A DNA stretch of 23,509 nt from a virus: the IMG/VR virus record IMGVR_UViG_3300045964_000135, positions 1 through 23,509 of that record, one strand, 5' to 3'. The notes under the pieces are model-generated. The model made no database searches and was not told the DNA's origin. It worked only from the letters and a program-made list of their open reading frames with translations. Each line of letters opens with the position of its first letter. Position 1 is the stretch's first letter. Below are positions 4,263 to 23,509 of this stretch, piece by piece. The translations under genes and the position numbers were made by a program.

Positions 4263-4311
4263 CGTCGCCCGTGGGCGTCGCCCGTGGGCGTCGCCCGTGG
4301 GCGTCGCCCGT
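4263..4311. repeat. 13-bp tandem repeat, about 3.8 copies
   Basis: The unit CGTCGCCCGTGGG is repeated three times in full plus 10 bases, filling most of the gap between the coat stop and the next start. Each junction contains GGGCG-T-CGCCC, a perfect 5-bp inverted repeat, so the transcript can form several alternative short hairpins. It may tune the coat to downstream-gene ratio or be a slippage product. Confidence 0.9.
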
Positions 4312-14754: not shown

Positions 14755-15072
14755 ATGAGACGACAACGCGACCTGACCCCCTGGCCCCTGGCCACCCCAG
14801 AGCAGGCCAGGCAGTACACCGTCGAATATAGCCGCACCACAGCGGGAAGCGCCCTCTTTGAGGCGGGCGTCCCCCTCGCTGCCCTCCCCGCCCGGCTGGA
14901 GATCCGGCTGGAATCGATCCGCGTCGATCCCGTCGGGGAGGCGACCGGGATCGTGTGGACGCGCCTCGATGGCGGGCCCTGGATCCGTGAGGGGGGCTAT
15001 CTATTGAGCAAGCGCTTCCGCACGGAACCACCGACGGGGCCCTCCGGCCCCGCAGAGGAGACGCGACGATGA
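14755..15072 (+). CDS. Hypothetical protein
   Basis: 105 residues: MRRQRDLTPWPLATPEQARQ, YTVEYSRTTAGSALFEAGVP, then LEIRLESIRVDPVGEATGIV and WTRLDGGPWIREGGYLLSKR. Basic at the start, with beta-strand-like alternation later. No family recognised. The stop overlaps the next start as ATGA. The 89-bp gap before it contains two perfect hairpins (CCCCGTA/TACGGGG and CACTGG/CCAGTG), then GCGAGGAGACAACG, a variant of the recurring leader. Confidence 0.65.
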   Translation: MRRQRDLTPWPLATPEQARQYTVEYSRTTAGSALFEAGVPLAALPARLEIRLESIRVDPVGEATGIVWTRLDGGPWIREGGYLLSKRFRTEPPTGPSGPAEETRR

Positions 15073-15305
15073 GAACGATTCGATTATCGGATGGCACGGA
15101 GCTGGGGACCAACGAGCACGACGGCGGCGTGTTTGCCCGCCGCCAGGATGGCACTTGGCAACAGTGGACGGGCACGGGCCAGACGCCGTGCTTTCGCAGT
15201 CCCCAGCAGTTCTGGCGCTGGCTGCAACGGCACTATGATGGGTTGGAGGGCTGCCGCCTGCAGACCAGTCGCGGATGGTGAAGCGTGGCAACGGCCACGA
15301 GAGAC
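15046..15305 (+). repeat. 260-bp direct repeat, copy A
   Basis: By reading, 258 of 260 bases match copy B at 15956-16215, exactly 910 bp away. It spans half the leader hairpin, the ribosome site, a complete 70-codon gene and 24 bases after its stop. The two differences are one silent (TCG/TCA) and one Glu/Asp change. Confidence 0.97.
15069..15281 (+). CDS. Hypothetical protein, duplicated gene copy A
   Basis: 70 residues: MRTIRLSDGTELGTNEHDGG, VFARRQDGTWQQWTGTGQTP, CFRSPQQFWRWLQRHYDGLE, GCRLQTSRGW. A small alpha/beta domain with strand pairs followed by a Trp-rich helix (PQQFWRWLQRHYDG). No family recognised. The start overlaps the previous stop (ATGA) and has GAGGAG in the leader module. 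The copy at 15979 differs by one residue, so both copies are probably under the same selection or the duplication is very recent. Confidence 0.75.
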   Translation: MRTIRLSDGTELGTNEHDGGVFARRQDGTWQQWTGTGQTPCFRSPQQFWRWLQRHYDGLEGCRLQTSRGW

Positions 15306-15903: not shown

Positions 15904-15945
15904 GGCTGCGCTGGCGCTGTAACCCACGGGCGCTAACCCCCACGC

Positions 15946-15961
15946 GGGGCCCCGGGGCCCC
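15946..15961 (+). promoter_or_regulatory. Perfect 16-bp GC palindrome in recurring gene leader
   Basis: GGGGCCCCGGGGCCCC is fully self-complementary and abuts GCAGAGGAGACGCGACG and the next start. Related leaders are at 15036-15051 (GGGGCC, 4-nt loop, GGCCCC), 15322-15329 (GGGGCCCC) and 14733-14754. The pairing of a GC hairpin with the same ribosome site recurs across the operon. Confidence 0.7.
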
Positions 15962-16215
15962 GCAGAGGAGACGCGACGATGAGAACGATTCGATTATCAG
16001 ATGGCACGGAGCTGGGGACCAACGATCACGACGGCGGCGTGTTTGCCCGCCGCCAGGATGGCACTTGGCAACAGTGGACGGGCACGGGCCAGACGCCGTG
16101 CTTTCGCAGTCCCCAGCAGTTCTGGCGCTGGCTGCAACGGCACTATGATGGGTTGGAGGGCTGCCGCCTGCAGACCAGTCGCGGATGGTGAAGCGTGGCA
16201 ACGGCCACGAGAGAC
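15956..16215 (+). repeat. 260-bp direct repeat, copy B
   Basis: Second copy of 15046-15305, offset 910 bp, two substitutions. Its boundaries fall inside the leader hairpin and 24 bases past the stop of the small gene. Confidence 0.97.
15979..16191 (+). CDS. Hypothetical protein, duplicated gene copy B
   Basis: 70 residues, identical to the gene at 15069-15281 except Asp for Glu at position 16 (GTNDHDGG). Same leader and ribosome site. The 75-bp gap before it carries the 16-bp palindrome and no other gene. Having two working copies could double dosage of a small early protein; alternatively the duplication is a transient rearrangement or an assembly artefact, though two differences argue against a simple artefact. 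Confidence 0.75.
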   Translation: MRTIRLSDGTELGTNDHDGGVFARRQDGTWQQWTGTGQTPCFRSPQQFWRWLQRHYDGLEGCRLQTSRGW

Positions 16216-19696: not shown

Positions 19697-20836
19697 GTGA
19701 GCGTCAAAGTCATGGCCTATGTGTGGGACCATAGCCAACAGACGGGCACCAATCTGCTCATGATGCTGGCCATCGCCGATATGGCCAACGATGCCGGACG
19801 GTGCTGGCCGACTATGGACCGGCTGGCGCAAAAATGCCGCATGGAGAGACGCCAGGCGCAATATCTGATTAAACATCTGGTCGAAGTCGGTGAACTGCTT
19901 GTTGAGCATGGCAGAGGACGTGGGTATCCGTCGATCTATGTCGTAAAGGGTGCAGCCGAGTGCACCCTTTCTGGACCTGCCGAAGAAAAGGTGCAGTCCA
20001 GTGCACCCTTTCTCGAAGAAAAGGTGCAGTCCAGTGCACCCTTTCCAGAGATGAGCAACGAAAAGGTGCAGTCCAGTGCACCCTTTCTCGAAGAAAAGGT
20101 GCAGTCCAGTGCACCCTTTCCAGAGATGAGCAACGAAAAGGTGCAGTCCAGTGCACCCTTTCTCGAAGAAAAGGTGCAGTCCAGTGCACCCTTTCCAGAG
20201 ATGAGCAACGAAAAGGTGCAGTCCAGTGCACCCTTTTCCGCTGTCAACCAGGAATTGTTACAGATTCAGGATCTTCAAGATCTAAGACTAAAGACAAGAT
20301 CTAAGACAAGAAAAGATCCTAAGCAGCCGATACCTCCTCCTCCCTCCTCCTCCGAGGAGGCGATAGAGCTGGCGACGATTACCAGCGCAGAAGCGTTTGT
20401 GGCCCTATACAACGCGAATATCCCCCCAGGCATCCCCATGGCCAAAACCCTGTCACCAGAGCGCCGTCAGCGCATTGAGAAGCGTCTCAAGGACTTTCCC
20501 GACCGCCTGTTCTGGCTGACCTGCTTTCGCGCTCCTGCGAATTCTGCCTTTCTCCGGGGAGAACGCAATGGGCCAGGCCATCCACGATTCAAGTTCACTC
20601 TGAACTTCCTCCTCAGCAAAAAAGACGGCATCGAAAACTGTGTGAAAGTCTACGAAGGCAATTACGCCGATGATCCTCCACAGGAAGCGAGCCAGCCAGA
20701 CAACCAGGAGGCGATGGCCGCCCTGAGTCCCCGCATGCAAGACCTGACGCGCCAGGCGCAACAATCCGCCCAGCGCATGAAAAACGATCCCCGCTGGAAT
20801 CCAGCACTGCGAAAGGATGTGCATGAACAGCCCTGA
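19697..20836 (+). CDS. Replication initiator (lambda O-like) carrying the origin
   Basis: 379 residues, GTG start (MSVKVMAYVWDHS, the usual start of phage O-like proteins); ATG at 19712 is an alternative. Residues 15-85 form a winged helix (LMMLAIADMANDAGRCWPTM, DRLAQKCRMERRQAQYLIKH, LVEVGELLVEHGRGRG), the iteron-binding domain. Residues about 83-180 are the translated iterons: EKVQSSAPF appears seven times, separated alternately by LE and PEMSN. A basic linker (RLKTRSKTRKDPKQ) follows, then a helical C-terminal domain with TSAEAFVALYNANIPPGIPM and FWLTCFRAPANSAFLRGERN plus FTLNFLLSK. Known lambda logic: the N-terminus binds iterons, the C-terminus recruits the helicase loader. Confidence 0.85.
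   Translation: MSVKVMAYVWDHSQQTGTNLLMMLAIADMANDAGRCWPTMDRLAQKCRMERRQAQYLIKHLVEVGELLVEHGRGRGYPSIYVVKGAAECTLSGPAEEKVQSSAPFLEEKVQSSAPFPEMSNEKVQSSAPFLEEKVQSSAPFPEMSNEKVQSSAPFLEEKVQSSAPFPEMSNEKVQSSAPFSAVNQELLQIQDLQDLRLKTRSKTRKDPKQPIPPPPSSSEEAIELATITSAEAFVALYNANIPPGIPMAKTLSPERRQRIEKRLKDFPDRLFWLTCFRAPANSAFLRGERNGPGHPRFKFTLNFLLSKKDGIENCVKVYEGNYADDPPQEASQPDNQEAMAALSPRMQDLTRQAQQSAQRMKNDPRWNPALRKDVHEQP
19945..20236 (+). repeat. Replication origin: eight 26-bp palindromic iterons
   Basis: Iterons begin at 19945, 19986, 20019, 20061, 20094, 20136, 20169 and 20211. Each is a 10-bp arm (AAAAGGTGCA; AAAGGGTGCA in the first), a 6-bp centre (GTCCAG; GCCGAG in the first) and TGCACCCTTT. Seven are identical. 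Start-to-start spacing alternates 33 and 42 bp (a 75-bp higher-order period), about 3 and 4 helical turns. Confidence 0.88.
20261..20320 (+). other. AT-rich stretch beside the iterons, probable unwinding element
   Basis: About 35% GC by count, far below the neighbourhood. Contains a 13-bp direct repeat CAAGATCTAAGAC at 20276-20288 and 20295-20307. Placement just after the iterons matches lambda ori, where the AT-rich region opens first. Confidence 0.65.
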
Positions 20837-21401
20837 CGATATCGATGCCTTCCATGCGCTCATGACCACTCTGGCGGCGTTTTATCCCAACAGCAAACCC
20901 GATTTTGCCGCAGTCCTCGAAGGCTACTTCGAAGACCTCAAGCATCTCACGCTGGAGCAAGTCAAGATCGTCTTCGTGCTGGCCCGACGCCGCTATGACT
21001 TTTTCCCGCAGATTTCCCAACTGCTCAAAGTCGCCGGCGAAGCCTTCGCCTCTCCTCCCGCGCTGCCGGCACGCGACCGGGCACTTGAAGCTTGGAGCGA
21101 TCTGCGCCGCTTCAGTGGCATGCCGTACCGCGAGGTGGCGCTTGAGGATCCTATCACGCGCCGCTGTTTTGAGGCACTAGGGGGCAAAGCCGCCTTTGGG
21201 ACGTGGGATTTTGAGCGCGAGGAAAGCCGCATGCGACAGTATTTTTGCGACCTCTATCGCACCTATGTCGAACGCGGCGCCCAGTGGACGAGCAAAGAAG
21301 AGGCCGAGGCGCTGCTCAAAAACCTGGGCTTCGATCACCTGTTTGGCGGCCACTGGCTTGGCGCAGGAGATGACGATGACGCGCTCACACCCAGAGATTG
21401 A
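20823..21401 (+). CDS. Replication protein, probable helicase-loader type
   Basis: 192 residues from MNSPDDIDAFHALMTTLAAF. The N-terminal half, YPNSKPDFAAVLEGYFEDLK-HLTLEQVKIVF then RRRYDFFPQISQLLKVAGEA, resembles G39P/DUF6475-type phage replication proteins with the 'FP....L' step. The C-terminal half, ALEAWSDLRRFSGMPYREVA, LEDPITRRCFEALGGKAAFG, REESRMRQYFCDLYRTYVER, matches the same family's second domain. Directly after the O-like gene, it would bring the host DnaB helicase to the origin. The start at 20823 is chosen because AAAGGA gives proper spacing; it overlaps the O-like stop by 14 nt. Family naming is from memory of patterns. Confidence 0.7.
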   Translation: MNSPDDIDAFHALMTTLAAFYPNSKPDFAAVLEGYFEDLKHLTLEQVKIVFVLARRRYDFFPQISQLLKVAGEAFASPPALPARDRALEAWSDLRRFSGMPYREVALEDPITRRCFEALGGKAAFGTWDFEREESRMRQYFCDLYRTYVERGAQWTSKEEAEALLKNLGFDHLFGGHWLGAGDDDDALTPRD

Positions 21402-21777
21402 GACCACGCCGGCACGCTACCCGCCGTCCCACGGCACGCGCTACCTGCTGCCCGCCGCGGTGCTGGGGCTGGGCGGGCTGTACGAGTACGTCCTGATCGA
21501 TCTGGAGATGGCGCGGCGCTGGCTGCTCGCCGGGCCGTGCACGTCGTATGTCACGCACCCGCAGCTCAAGGGCGAACTCGATCGCGTCGTGGGGATGTTT
21601 ACGCCGCCAGGGCAGGGAGGGGCCCTGCCGACGCTGGGCTATCACGATGATGCGCTGCTGTGGCAGGTCGAGGGCTTTGAACTCCTCGCCTGGCAGGCGC
21701 GCGGCAATAGCAAGCGTCTGCGGGCGCTGGTGGAGGCCGGCAGGTGGACACTCGGGCTGCTGCGGCGGCTGGCTTAG
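21376..21777 (+). CDS. DUF1874 / STIV B116-like protein, candidate AcrIII-1 ring nuclease
   Basis: 133 residues. The order RYLLPAAVLGLGGLYEYVLI, DLEMARRWLLAGP, TSYVTHPQLKGELDRVVG, YHDDALLWQVEG, and the C-terminal GRWTLGLLRRL follows the DUF1874 plan (LLN..V...G.Y.Y..I.L.EA...L, then S.IGH...... L..LLG, GD.ALV..L, and ...FGLLRR). His61 falls where AcrIII-1 places its catalytic His. AcrIII-1 enzymes degrade cyclic tetra-adenylate and so switch off type III CRISPR ancillary defence. The IGH context is changed (VTH), so activity is uncertain. Start 21376 is preferred over 21370 because CAGGAG is then 6 nt away; it overlaps the previous gene. Confidence 0.5.
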   Translation: MTRSHPEIETTPARYPPSHGTRYLLPAAVLGLGGLYEYVLIDLEMARRWLLAGPCTSYVTHPQLKGELDRVVGMFTPPGQGGALPTLGYHDDALLWQVEGFELLAWQARGNSKRLRALVEAGRWTLGLLRRLA

Positions 21778-21853
21778 GGCGTTTTTGGGCCTTGAGAGGG
21801 CCAGCACGCCCTGTGGCGCAGGCGCCGCGTATCCAGAGAGGGGGGATCCAGTC

Positions 21854-22063
21854 ATGACCATCCTCGACGCAAAAAACGATAAAAGTGACGCACCCGTCCG
21901 CTATTGTCCTCCGGGGCGGCACCGCTGGGCGCCGCGGCTTGCGGCCGATCACCCGAAGCAGTGTTGGGACTGTCCGGCGGTGGAGCGCCAGGCGCCGCAG
22001 CCCCGGCTGCTGCCGGAGCCGCGGCCGTGGGGGGAGACGACAACCGAGCGCAGAAGGAGGTGA
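21854..22063 (+). CDS. Small zinc-knuckle protein
   Basis: 69 residues: MTILDAKNDKSDAPVRYCPP, GRHRWAPRLAADHPKQCWDC, PAVERQAPQPRLLPEPRPWG, ETTTERRRR. The pattern C-x4-H ... C-x2-C (YCPPGRH, CWDC) could hold one zinc. Basic C-terminus. No strong Shine-Dalgarno is visible beyond GAGGGGGG. Its TGA stop is the first pentamer of the repeat array that follows. No family recognised. The 76-bp gap before it has a GGGCGT/ACGCCC dyad (21777-21811) and nothing else. Confidence 0.6.
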   Translation: MTILDAKNDKSDAPVRYCPPGRHRWAPRLAADHPKQCWDCPAVERQAPQPRLLPEPRPWGETTTERRRR

Positions 22064-22243
22064 CGCGACTCGACTCGACAGGACCGGACGAGACGCGACT
22101 CGACTCGACGTGACACGACATGAGACGCCGCCCGCCGCCGCGCAGAACAGGCAGGACGCGACATGACTGGACGCGACTGGACGCGACTAGACATGACGCG
22201 ACGCGACCTGACTGGACGCGACACGACCTGACATGACCCGAGA
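22061..22243 (+). repeat. Degenerate pentanucleotide (NGACN) array 1
   Basis: A phased run of 5-bp units, each centred on GAC, starts at the stop codon (TGACG CGACT CGACT ...). Twelve units conform over 22061-22120. A 30-bp GC-rich interruption follows, then 17 consecutive conforming units from 22154 to 22238. Outer positions vary (A, C, G, T). No frame is open as a credible gene. Confidence 0.9.
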
Positions 22244-22259
22244 CAAGAAAGGAGACCCT

Positions 22260-22790
22260 ATGGCCGACCCGATTCGCCGCATTTCGCCGAACCCGCCCGC
22301 CCGGCGCTGGGGCTGGAAGACGCGCCAGATCGTCGATTGTATCCGCGACCTGGTAGCCATTGGCGAGGTGTTTAGCTATGCCATGTGTCTGGACCTCTGC
22401 GGCATCGACCTGCAACGCGAAGAGCATCTGCGGGAGTCGGTGAAACTCCTCGCCCTGGACTACGATATCGTCCTGGAAGCCGTACCCGGGGTGGGCTATC
22501 AACGGCTCTCGGAGCCGGCCAAGGTGGACAAAGGCGACAGCGATTTCCAGCGCATCTATCGCAAAGCCCGCCGGATCCAGGCCGAGCAAGCCACGGTAGA
22601 GGTGCTCCAGCTCTCCGATCTGGACCGCCATCGCTATCTGTCCCAGCAAACCCTTGCCGGGTGCCTGACCCTGTGGACCGATCCGCGCGTGCGCCGGGCC
22701 CTGCCGCAGGCGCCTGAGCCGCCGGCGCTGCCCGTGCCGTTCGATTTTGCGGCGCACAAGGATTTGTTCACGCGGAAGCAGACGTCGTGA
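22260..22790 (+). CDS. Hypothetical protein with a probable winged-helix fold
   Basis: 176 residues from MADPIRRISPNPPARRWGWK. TRQIVDCIRDLVAIGEVFSY, AMCLDLCGIDLQREEHLRES, VKLLALDYDIVLEAVPGVGY then QRLS looks like a winged-helix DNA-binding domain ending in the GVGYxRL wing seen in some regulators. The rest (DFQRIYRKARRIQAEQATVE, LDRHRYLSQQTLAGCLTLWT) is helical. AAAGGAG is 7 nt upstream. Its stop codon TGA opens the second pentamer array, so it is bounded by arrays on both sides. A regulator acting on the arrays is possible but untested. Confidence 0.65.
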   Translation: MADPIRRISPNPPARRWGWKTRQIVDCIRDLVAIGEVFSYAMCLDLCGIDLQREEHLRESVKLLALDYDIVLEAVPGVGYQRLSEPAKVDKGDSDFQRIYRKARRIQAEQATVEVLQLSDLDRHRYLSQQTLAGCLTLWTDPRVRRALPQAPEPPALPVPFDFAAHKDLFTRKQTS

Positions 22791-22872
22791 CGCGACATGA
22801 CTTGACTCGACTCGACTCGACGCGACTGGACTCGACTCGACCTGACTCGACACGACTTGACGCGACATGACA
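22788..22872 (+). repeat. Degenerate pentanucleotide (NGACN) array 2
   Basis: Seventeen consecutive 5-bp units, all NGACN (TGACG CGACA TGACT TGACT CGACT ...), begin at the stop codon of the preceding gene and end 48 bp before the next start. No unit departs from the GAC core. Confidence 0.92.
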
Positions 22873-22920
22873 CGCCGGGGCGCGCCGCCATACGCCCCGC
22901 GACGCCAGAAAGGAGGCCCC

Positions 22921-23205
22921 ATGCCTGAGCCCCTCACCGTGATCCGCACCCCCCACAGCCGCAACCCCTGGCGCCTCGCCGTGCACGGCCAGCCGCTCGA
23001 CAGCGCGTACTGCTGGCCCACGCGGCGGCTGGCCGAGCAGGTACGGCAGCAGGTCATCGCGCTCGCTGACTGGACCCAGCCACCAGCGACCTGGGACGCC
23101 GCGACGCAGGCGCGGGTGCTGGCGGTGCTGGAGGCGTGCGACAGTGCGCTTGCCCTCCGGCGGCTACAAGTCCGAAAACTCCAAGGAGATCTCTATGGCC
23201 ATTGA
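22921..23205 (+). CDS. Hypothetical protein
   Basis: 94 residues: MPEPLTVIRTPHSRNPWRLA, VHGQPLDSAYCWPTRRLAEQ, VRQQVIALADWTQPPATWDA, ATQARVLAVLEACDSALALR. Beta-rich start, then helices. No family recognised. AAAGGAGG sits 6 nt before the ATG, the strongest ribosome site in this part. The gene overlaps the next one by 11 nt, indicating coupling. Confidence 0.65.
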   Translation: MPEPLTVIRTPHSRNPWRLAVHGQPLDSAYCWPTRRLAEQVRQQVIALADWTQPPATWDAATQARVLAVLEACDSALALRRLQVRKLQGDLYGH

Positions 23206-23479
23206 CGCCACCACCGGATCGGCGTCCGGTGCAAGCCTGACGACCCAACAACCCGGCCAGCCGCCGGTCGTCCGCCCGGTGCCGCCCTCGTGGGCCACGG
23301 TAGCGCCGCTCCTGGAGCGCTGGCAGATCGCCCTGGCGCCGCACCGGGACGGCACGTGGGACGTGGTTGCGTTCCACACCGGCATCGGTCCCCCGCACGA
23401 CGCCCGGCAGGTGCCGTTTGCGCGGCTGCCGCAGACCATTGCGGACCTCGCTGCGCAGTGCGAAGCCGCCCCTGGATGA
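23195..23479 (+). CDS. Hypothetical protein
   Basis: 94 residues starting MAIDATTGSASGASLTTQQP. A Thr/Ser/Pro-rich disordered start precedes WATVAPLLERWQIALAPHRD, GTWDVVAFHTGIGPPHDARQ and RLPQTIADLAAQCEA, a small alpha/beta unit. No family recognised. AAGGAG is 6-8 nt upstream. The last 30 bp of the window hold GC-rich hairpin sequence (CCTGG-CTCGA-CCAGG) and no gene. Confidence 0.6.
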   Translation: MAIDATTGSASGASLTTQQPGQPPVVRPVPPSWATVAPLLERWQIALAPHRDGTWDVVAFHTGIGPPHDARQVPFARLPQTIADLAAQCEAAPG

Positions 23480-23509
23480 CACTCCAGGGCAGGCCCTGGC
23501 TCGACCAGG

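What the first reader, a model, noticed from the sequence alone, without database searches (positions are those of the whole stretch)
22061..22872. Two degenerate NGACN pentanucleotide arrays, each starting at a stop codon
Two spacers flanking one gene consist of phased 5-bp units with an invariant GAC core and free outer bases: 17 consecutive units in array 2, 17 plus 12 in array 1. Both begin with the TGA stop of the preceding gene (TGACGCGAC). A conserved core with drifting edges is unlike simple slippage and suggests selection on spacing or on GAC itself, for example a protein binding every half-turn, a methylation-rich tract (GACTC is a GANTC site), or an unstructured RNA linker.
Basis: seen in the sequence. 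Interest (0 to 1): 0.8.

Follow-up and report, generated by a model that had tools for sequence, protein, structure and literature searches.

The report
Phage guide-RNA arrays with GAC code
The odd five-base repeats are almost certainly guide-RNA genes of VIPR, a recently described phage-against-phage system related to CRISPR, here with a GAC rather than a GGY framework and with no Vipr effector gene found in the 34-kb contig.

Summary
The window holds three uninterrupted runs of GACNN units: 12 (22062-22119), 17 (22155-22237) and 17 (22789-22871); Markov shuffles never exceed 3 units. Degenerate GAC arrays recur in dozens of IMG/VR contigs, beside a ~187-aa Cas7/Csm3-fold RAMP protein (50 of 63 loci; 0 of 55 loci with monomorphic or low-diversity GAC repeats) and often the winged-helix family encoded between the window's arrays. 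Starting from the RAMP instead, many homologs are flanked by period-5 arrays with lineage-specific cores: GGC, GAC, GTC, CGC, GTT, CTC. This matches VIPR (PMC13142463), in which vrRNAs made of GGY/NN repeats are RNA guides and the free NN pair with DNA targets. Phage SUSP1's vipr and vap1 (identified by locus architecture) hit my two family profiles. Near-identical loci keep every GAC but replace most NN, as guides should. The window gene is a Vap1-like accessory. Differences: the core is GAC, and no vipr gene was found in the 34.4-kb version of this phage, which may be a fragment. No natural target was found. The winged-helix-binding, methylation and linker ideas are not supported.

The parts
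22062..22119 (+). GACNN array 1a, 12 units; candidate vrRNA guide; NN = GC TC TC AG CG GA GC TC TC GT AC AT
   Evidence: exact period-5 GAC run, shuffles max 3; association with Vipr/Vap loci
22120..22154 (+). 35-nt non-periodic stretch between arrays 1a and 1b, possible 3' tail of 1a
   Evidence: sequence; no significant fold (z 0.67)
22155..22237 (+). GACNN array 1b, 17 units; candidate vrRNA guide; NN = GC AT TG GC TG GC TA AT GC GC CT TG GC AC CT AT (CC); NN order is unusually self-complementary
   Evidence: NN-order shuffles 0 of 400 fold as stably
22260..22790 (+). vap-like gene (winged-helix plus helical C-terminus, 176 aa)
   Evidence: profile built without the window hits it at E 1.7e-13; the same profile hits SUSP1 vap1 at 5.2e-5; AF2 pLDDT 87.8, best PDB hits are winged-helix DNA-binding domains but only E 0.04
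22789..22871 (+). GACNN array 2, 17 units; candidate vrRNA guide; NN = GC AT TT TC TC TC GC TG TC TC CT TC AC TT GC AT (AC); first unit overlaps the vap stop codon
22872..22920 (+). GC-rich stretch with potential hairpin after array 2, then ribosome-binding site for the next ORF; possible 3' tail
   Evidence: RNA fold -19.6 kcal/mol but z 0.11, so not above chance

Best explanation
The arrays are genes for VIPR guide RNAs (vrRNAs) with a GAC framework. Transcribed from the plus strand, each would be a series of GAC anchors read by Cas7-like Vipr subunits, one per 5 nt, separated by NN dinucleotides that pair with a double-stranded DNA target with one skipped base per step, blocking transcription of a competing phage or satellite; the 176-aa winged-helix Vap would assist. 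Shown here: the arrays, their sense-strand association with Vipr/Vap families across phages, the Cas7 fold of Vipr (predicted model), core specificity tracking Vipr phylogeny, and guide turnover with a frozen core. Inferred from the published system: expression as RNA, RNP formation, the 1-nt skip rule and target repression for this GAC member. No vipr gene was found in the 34.4-kb contig, so the effector is either outside the fragment or supplied in trans.
For: Runs of 12, 17 and 17 GACNN units. Degenerate GAC arrays co-occur with the RAMP family in 50 of 63 loci against 0 of 55 loci with monomorphic or low-diversity (GACxx)n repeats. Family B model pLDDT 96.3 with Cas7/Csm3 fold: Foldseek 1.6e-7 to type VII Cas7, VIA Z 12.5, 161 residues, rmsd 3.6 to Csm3. 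Protein-first searches retrieve period-5 arrays with other cores; sense-strand cores GGC 41, GAC 32, GTC 13, CGC 6, GTT 2, CTC 1. Core label needs 18 changes on the Vipr tree against 44.9 shuffled, 0 of 200 as low. Published VIPR: phage RAMP, Vap, tandem GGY/NN vrRNAs 'or a related consensus', NN pair with DNA. SUSP1 vipr (28474-29061) hits my B profile at 1.4e-15 and vap1 hits the A profile at 3.5e-6; without the window 5.2e-5, and the window protein hits at 1.7e-13. L017 and L026, with 99% identical vipr DNA, keep every aligned GAC and the last AA units plus tail but replace most NN.
Against: No Vipr in the window or the 34.4-kb contig, even with unfiltered hmmsearch. The core is GAC, not GGY; the paper's list of related consensuses (fig. 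S17) could not be read. No natural target of the window's guides was found, and a skip-rule test against the fetched loci gave no signal. No sigma-70-type promoter-like site near the arrays and no tail with significant structure in the window. No transcription data. The SUSP1 gene assignments rest on gap and length match to the paper's description, as its annotation reads 'hypothetical protein'.
Confidence: 0.88

Rival explanations
1. RNA-binding-protein target array: the GAC triplets in the untranslated leaders are bound by a ring or filament protein (as TRAP binds NNGAG repeats) to control translation of vap and the downstream gene; the NN are mere spacers.
For: Arrays sit in spacers just upstream of ribosome-binding sites and on the coding strand; 5-nt period and triplet core resemble TRAP targets (recalled knowledge).
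Against: NN are replaced wholesale between loci with 99% identical flanks while 3' units stay fixed, more than spacer drift would give; the partner protein is a Cas7-fold RAMP; the homologous published system uses NN as guides.
Confidence: 0.05
2. Relic or guide-only locus (compatible with the best explanation): the arrays and vap are leftovers or parasitic guides of a VIPR locus whose vipr was lost, either decaying or using a Vipr made by another element in the same cell.
For: No Vipr in 34.4 kb; related loci have the order array-vipr-array-vap-array, so a vipr would be expected; six other contigs of 34-93 kb have degenerate GAC arrays without a profile-detectable Vipr; L048's contig has a vipr with an in-frame TGA. 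The preprint reports satellites that encode their own vrRNAs.
Against: The contig shows no terminal repeat and may be incomplete; Vipr is diverse (seven types) and could escape my profiles; all GAC cores in the runs are intact, which is unlike decay.
Confidence: 0.35
3. Simple slippage or chance low-complexity repeat.
For: Many (GACxx)n monomorphic satellites exist in viral contigs (45 loci); NN diversity in the window's arrays is modest.
Against: Slippage gives uniform units; here core and edge evolve differently; none of the 55 monomorphic or low-diversity loci carries the RAMP or Vap families.
Confidence: 0.02
4. DNA-level element: GANTC methylation tract or a half-turn DNA-binding site for the winged-helix protein.
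For: Winged-helix gene lies between the arrays.
Against: Homologous arrays use GGC, CGC, GTT, CTC cores without GANTC and on one strand relative to vipr.
Confidence: 0.03

Closest known systems
VIPR (Viral Interference Programmable Repeat) systems, Escherichia phage SUSP1 and Pseudomonas fulva prophage (PMC13142463)
   Same: Tandem pentanucleotide repeats, three fixed and two hypervariable bases, in long intergenic regions beside a small Vap gene in a phage; the homologous Vipr RAMP is present in most relatives; SUSP1 vipr and vap1 hit profiles built from these loci.
   Different: Core is GAC instead of GGY; arrays of 12-17 units directly flank vap; no vipr in the available 34.4 kb; no demonstrated RNA, tail structure or target.
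Class 1 CRISPR effectors (Csm3/Cas7, type VII Cas7)
   Same: Vipr-family model has the Cas7/Csm3 fold; RNA-guided RAMP filament logic.
   Different: No CRISPR repeats or spacers, no cas operon; 5-nt instead of 6-nt period; guide information in gapped dinucleotides (per PMC13142463).
TRAP (trp RNA-binding attenuation protein) target sites
   Same: Repeated triplets separated by about 2 nt, in leader RNA (recalled knowledge).
   Different: Different fold and biology; TRAP spacers carry no guide information; TRAP genes were not searched for.
EBPR podovirus 1 (JF412294)
   Same: Closest named relative of the phage by TerL, about 50% identity.
   Different: Carries no comparable arrays.

Membership tests
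VIPR system | Tandem ~5-nt repeats with a fixed triplet and hypervariable NN | tested here: met
VIPR system | Core triplet GGY 'or a related consensus' | tested here: inconclusive
   strict GGY is not met: core is GAC throughout; the paper allows 'a related consensus' whose list (fig. S17) could not be read; relatives with the same protein families use GAC, GTC, CGC, GTT, CTC
VIPR system | vipr (ancestral RAMP) gene in the locus | tested here: inconclusive
   absent from the window and 34.4-kb contig; contig may be a fragment; present beside homologous GAC arrays in 50 loci
VIPR system | vap accessory gene of a known Vap family | tested here: met
   window protein E 1.7e-13 and SUSP1 vap1 E 5.2e-5 to a profile built without either
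VIPR system | Arrays expressed as small RNAs bound by Vipr | not testable with these tools
   needs small-RNA sequencing or pull-down
VIPR system | NN specify a DNA target by the 1-nt skip rule | tested here: inconclusive
   no target in viral contigs by exact 9-10-NN seeds or in 299 genomes of one family with up to 3 mismatches; local test without signal; NN composition resembles codon positions 1-2 more than genomic background, but base composition explains most of it
VIPR system | Structured invariant 3' tail | tested here: inconclusive
   invariant 3' units and tail between L017 and L026; window tails fold no better than shuffles
Cas7/Csm3-like RAMP (family B, in relatives) | RAMP fold | tested here: met
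TRAP target array | (G/U)AG core triplets | tested here: not met
   core is GAC; presence of a TRAP gene itself was not searched

The most novel reading that the evidence does not exclude
A guide-only VIPR locus: a temperate phage that carries GAC-coded vrRNA guides and a Vap but no effector, and loads its guides into a Vipr made by another element in the same cell, so that guides act in trans; within the wider family, the framework triplet is an evolvable code that keeps the guides of one Vipr clade apart from another.
Probability: 0.25. Interest if true: 0.82.

Novelty: new variant of a known kind. Interest (0 to 1): 0.58.

Why it matters
VIPR was described only in 2026, as GGY-coded. These loci show, from sequence alone, that the framework triplet is itself evolvable (GAC, GTC, GGC, CGC, GTT, CTC, one CAC) and follows Vipr phylogeny, that NN guides are swapped as blocks between otherwise near-identical phages, and that some phage contigs carry arrays without a detectable effector. 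This makes the specificity of Vipr for its anchor triplet directly testable by swapping arrays and Viprs between clades, and suggests mutually orthogonal guide scaffolds.

Tried and rejected
blastn and tblastn of the region and the Vap against INPHARED phages: nothing; B gave one hit, phage DSL-LC04, whose own array turned out to be GGY, which first showed that the core varies. TRAP-like leader control was my first idea; dropped after the Cas7 fold and the VIPR paper. An apparent antisense orientation of arrays in about 12 loci was resolved as a GTC core in the sense strand. A suspected DUF1874/AcrIII-1-like ORF upstream (21397-21774) had no Pfam or PHROG support. Target searches for the window's guides found nothing convincing; the single seed hit L306 matched 26 of 34 NN bases, with 6 of 14 outside the seed, judged chance. 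Rfam matches in 21500-23509 were all below gathering score. The profile match of family A to PHROGs was weak.

Full report
Observation. The window contains three perfect period-5 runs of GAC: 22062-22119 (12 units), 22155-22237 (17) and 22789-22871 (17). The longest in 200 order-2 Markov shuffles was 3, and no other run of 4 or more GAC or GTC units exists in the window. Arrays 1a and 2 share their first GA with the TGA stop of the preceding ORF. The unit is three fixed bases plus two free ones.

Recurrence. About half the loci hold degenerate arrays. Sixty-four of the fetched loci apart from the window pass the degeneracy cut or lie close to it; 63 are classed degenerate (at least 4 different dinucleotides in a run of 8 or more). 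Fifty of the 63 encode one ~187-aa protein family (B) within the fetched DNA; 27 of these plus one other (L048) also encode the winged-helix family (A) to which the window's 22260-22790 gene belongs. None of the 55 loci with monomorphic or low-diversity GAC repeats has either. This built-in control separates the degenerate arrays from ordinary simple repeats. Some of the 63 are fragments of the same contig or near-copies, so the counts are not fully independent.

The partner protein. An AlphaFold model of family B (pLDDT 96.3, pTM 0.88) matches Cas7/Csm3 RAMP proteins: Foldseek best 1.6e-7 to type VII Cas7; VIA-align Z 12.5, rmsd 3.6 A over 161 residues to Csm3. It has no Pfam match and falls in PHROG 4652 of unknown function.

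Searching from the protein. Two family-B alignments retrieved 243 and 322 relatives in IMG/VR, 80 kept each. Scanning their surroundings for any period-5 array showed many with three conserved and two free columns, but the core differs: GGC, GAC, CGC, GTC, GTT, CTC. After dereplication, 95 Vipr proteins with a clear sense-strand core gave GGC 41, GAC 32, GTC 13, CGC 6, GTT 2, CTC 1 (the GAC and GTC numbers are inflated because the first scan was for GAC); one MAG shows CAC. Reverse-complement forms such as GCC or GCG were never the best core, so the arrays are strand-specific relative to the gene. About half of the protein-retrieved loci had no run long enough for a strict call, partly because some cores are looser (for example G-any-C, visible). 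The core label clusters strongly on the Vipr tree: 18 changes against a shuffled mean of 44.9, 0 of 200 as low (near-copies contribute, and several long branches are unsure). Phage DSL-LC04, found by protein only, has a GGY-type array beside its homolog.

Identification. A literature search found VIPR (PMC13142463): a phage-encoded ancestral RAMP (Vipr), accessory vap genes, and vrRNAs of 9-16 repeats with a GGY core and hypervariable NN, which bind double-stranded DNA by pairing the NN with a one-base skip and repress competing elements. In SUSP1 (KT454805) two adjacent genes at 28474-29061 and 28031-28471, flanked by long gaps and matching the paper's locus description (my inference from length and gaps; the record calls both hypothetical), hit the family-B profile at E 1.4e-15 and the family-A profile at 3.5e-6. 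With the window left out of the profile, the window protein scores 1.7e-13 and SUSP1 vap1 5.2e-5 among 2,076 reading frames. Family B is therefore Vipr and family A a Vap1-like family. Five bacterial MAGs found by Vipr (Ca. Accumulibacter, Competibacteraceae, Rhodospirillales, Methylococcaceae, Pantanalinema) each have exactly one family-A match.

Guides with a GAC frame. Loci L017 and L026 have 99.1% identical vipr DNA. In the alignment, every aligned GAC of both arrays is kept, while most NN are replaced; the last AA units and the following tail (AAGACAAGAC then AGCAGTTTTC or AGCAATTTTC) are preserved. Similar guide differences occur between L050 and L091, L113 and L116, L258 and L259, L294 and L295, and partly L183 and L191. 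This is what a programmable guide with a fixed anchor and 3' tail predicts. NN in GAC and GGC arrays resemble codon positions 1-2 more than genomic background does (50 of 89 GAC/GTC guides against a background maximum of 41), but re-dealing second letters within guides gives nearly the same, so this is only suggestive.

The window itself. The phage is a temperate podovirus-like virus (TerL about 50% identical to EBPR podovirus 1, integrase, O-like initiator). A second contig, L298/G001 of 34,395 bp, is nearly identical and extends past the window. No Vipr was found in it, even with unfiltered profile searches. The contig has no terminal repeat and may be a fragment, so absence is not proven. 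Elsewhere a common order is array-vipr-array-vap-array; the window shows array-array-vap-array. Six other contigs of 34-93 kb also carry degenerate GAC arrays without a profile-detectable Vipr, and one (L048) has a vipr with an in-frame TGA. Either divergent Viprs were missed, or guide-only loci exist.

Targets. Exact seeds of 9-10 NN with one skipped base for arrays 1b and 2 gave no hit, or one that looks like chance, in IMG/VR (69, 75). Full guides with up to 3 mismatches gave none in 299 genomes of the Accumulibacter family; that host is only a guess from the TerL relative. A test of skip lengths for 319 array readings (GAC-type arrays counted on both strands) against the fetched loci showed no signal, as expected for a few Mb of mostly unrelated sequence.

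Array 1b. Its dinucleotide order is palindromic: no NN-order shuffle of 400 folds as stably (-29.5 against a mean of -19.1 kcal/mol). Three arrays were tested, so this is notable but may be chance; if real it implies a dyad-symmetric target or a self-folding guide.

Conclusion. The arrays are very probably VIPR vrRNA guides in a GAC dialect. Steps shown: array, association, predicted fold, homology, core-clade link, guide turnover. Steps inferred from the published system: RNA, RNP, skip rule, repression.

Noticed in passing
window 19945-20236: About four 75-bp in-frame repeats holding GGTGCAGTCCAGTGCACC palindromes inside an O-like replication initiator gene (19697-20836), iteron-like; copy number seems to differ between the window and L298.
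   Followed up: partly
window 15028-15305 and 15940-16215: A 278-bp duplication at 97.5% identity that includes two nearly identical 70-aa ORFs.
   Followed up: no
window 22155-22202: The NN order of array 1b is palindromic; 0 of 400 NN-order shuffles fold as stably.
   Followed up: partly
window 4263-4311: Perfect 13-bp tandem repeat CGTCGCCCGTGGG, 3.8 copies.
   Followed up: no
L305 (record of L048, G002:C1:12850-13401): A vipr homolog with one in-frame TGA beside intact GAC arrays and vap.
   Followed up: no
L018, L021, L023, L036, L077, L100 (records G004-G007, G010, G011): Contigs of 34-93 kb with degenerate GAC arrays but no Vipr detectable by profile: divergent Viprs or guide-only loci.
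   Followed up: partly
L188/L191 and L183/L192/L193: CGC-core arrays share a sub-guide (GA AT TC AA CA GA AT CC) while the neighbouring guides differ, hinting at a retained common target.
   Followed up: no
L001-L119: 45 loci carry monomorphic (GACxx)n simple repeats that are unrelated to Vipr.
   Followed up: partly
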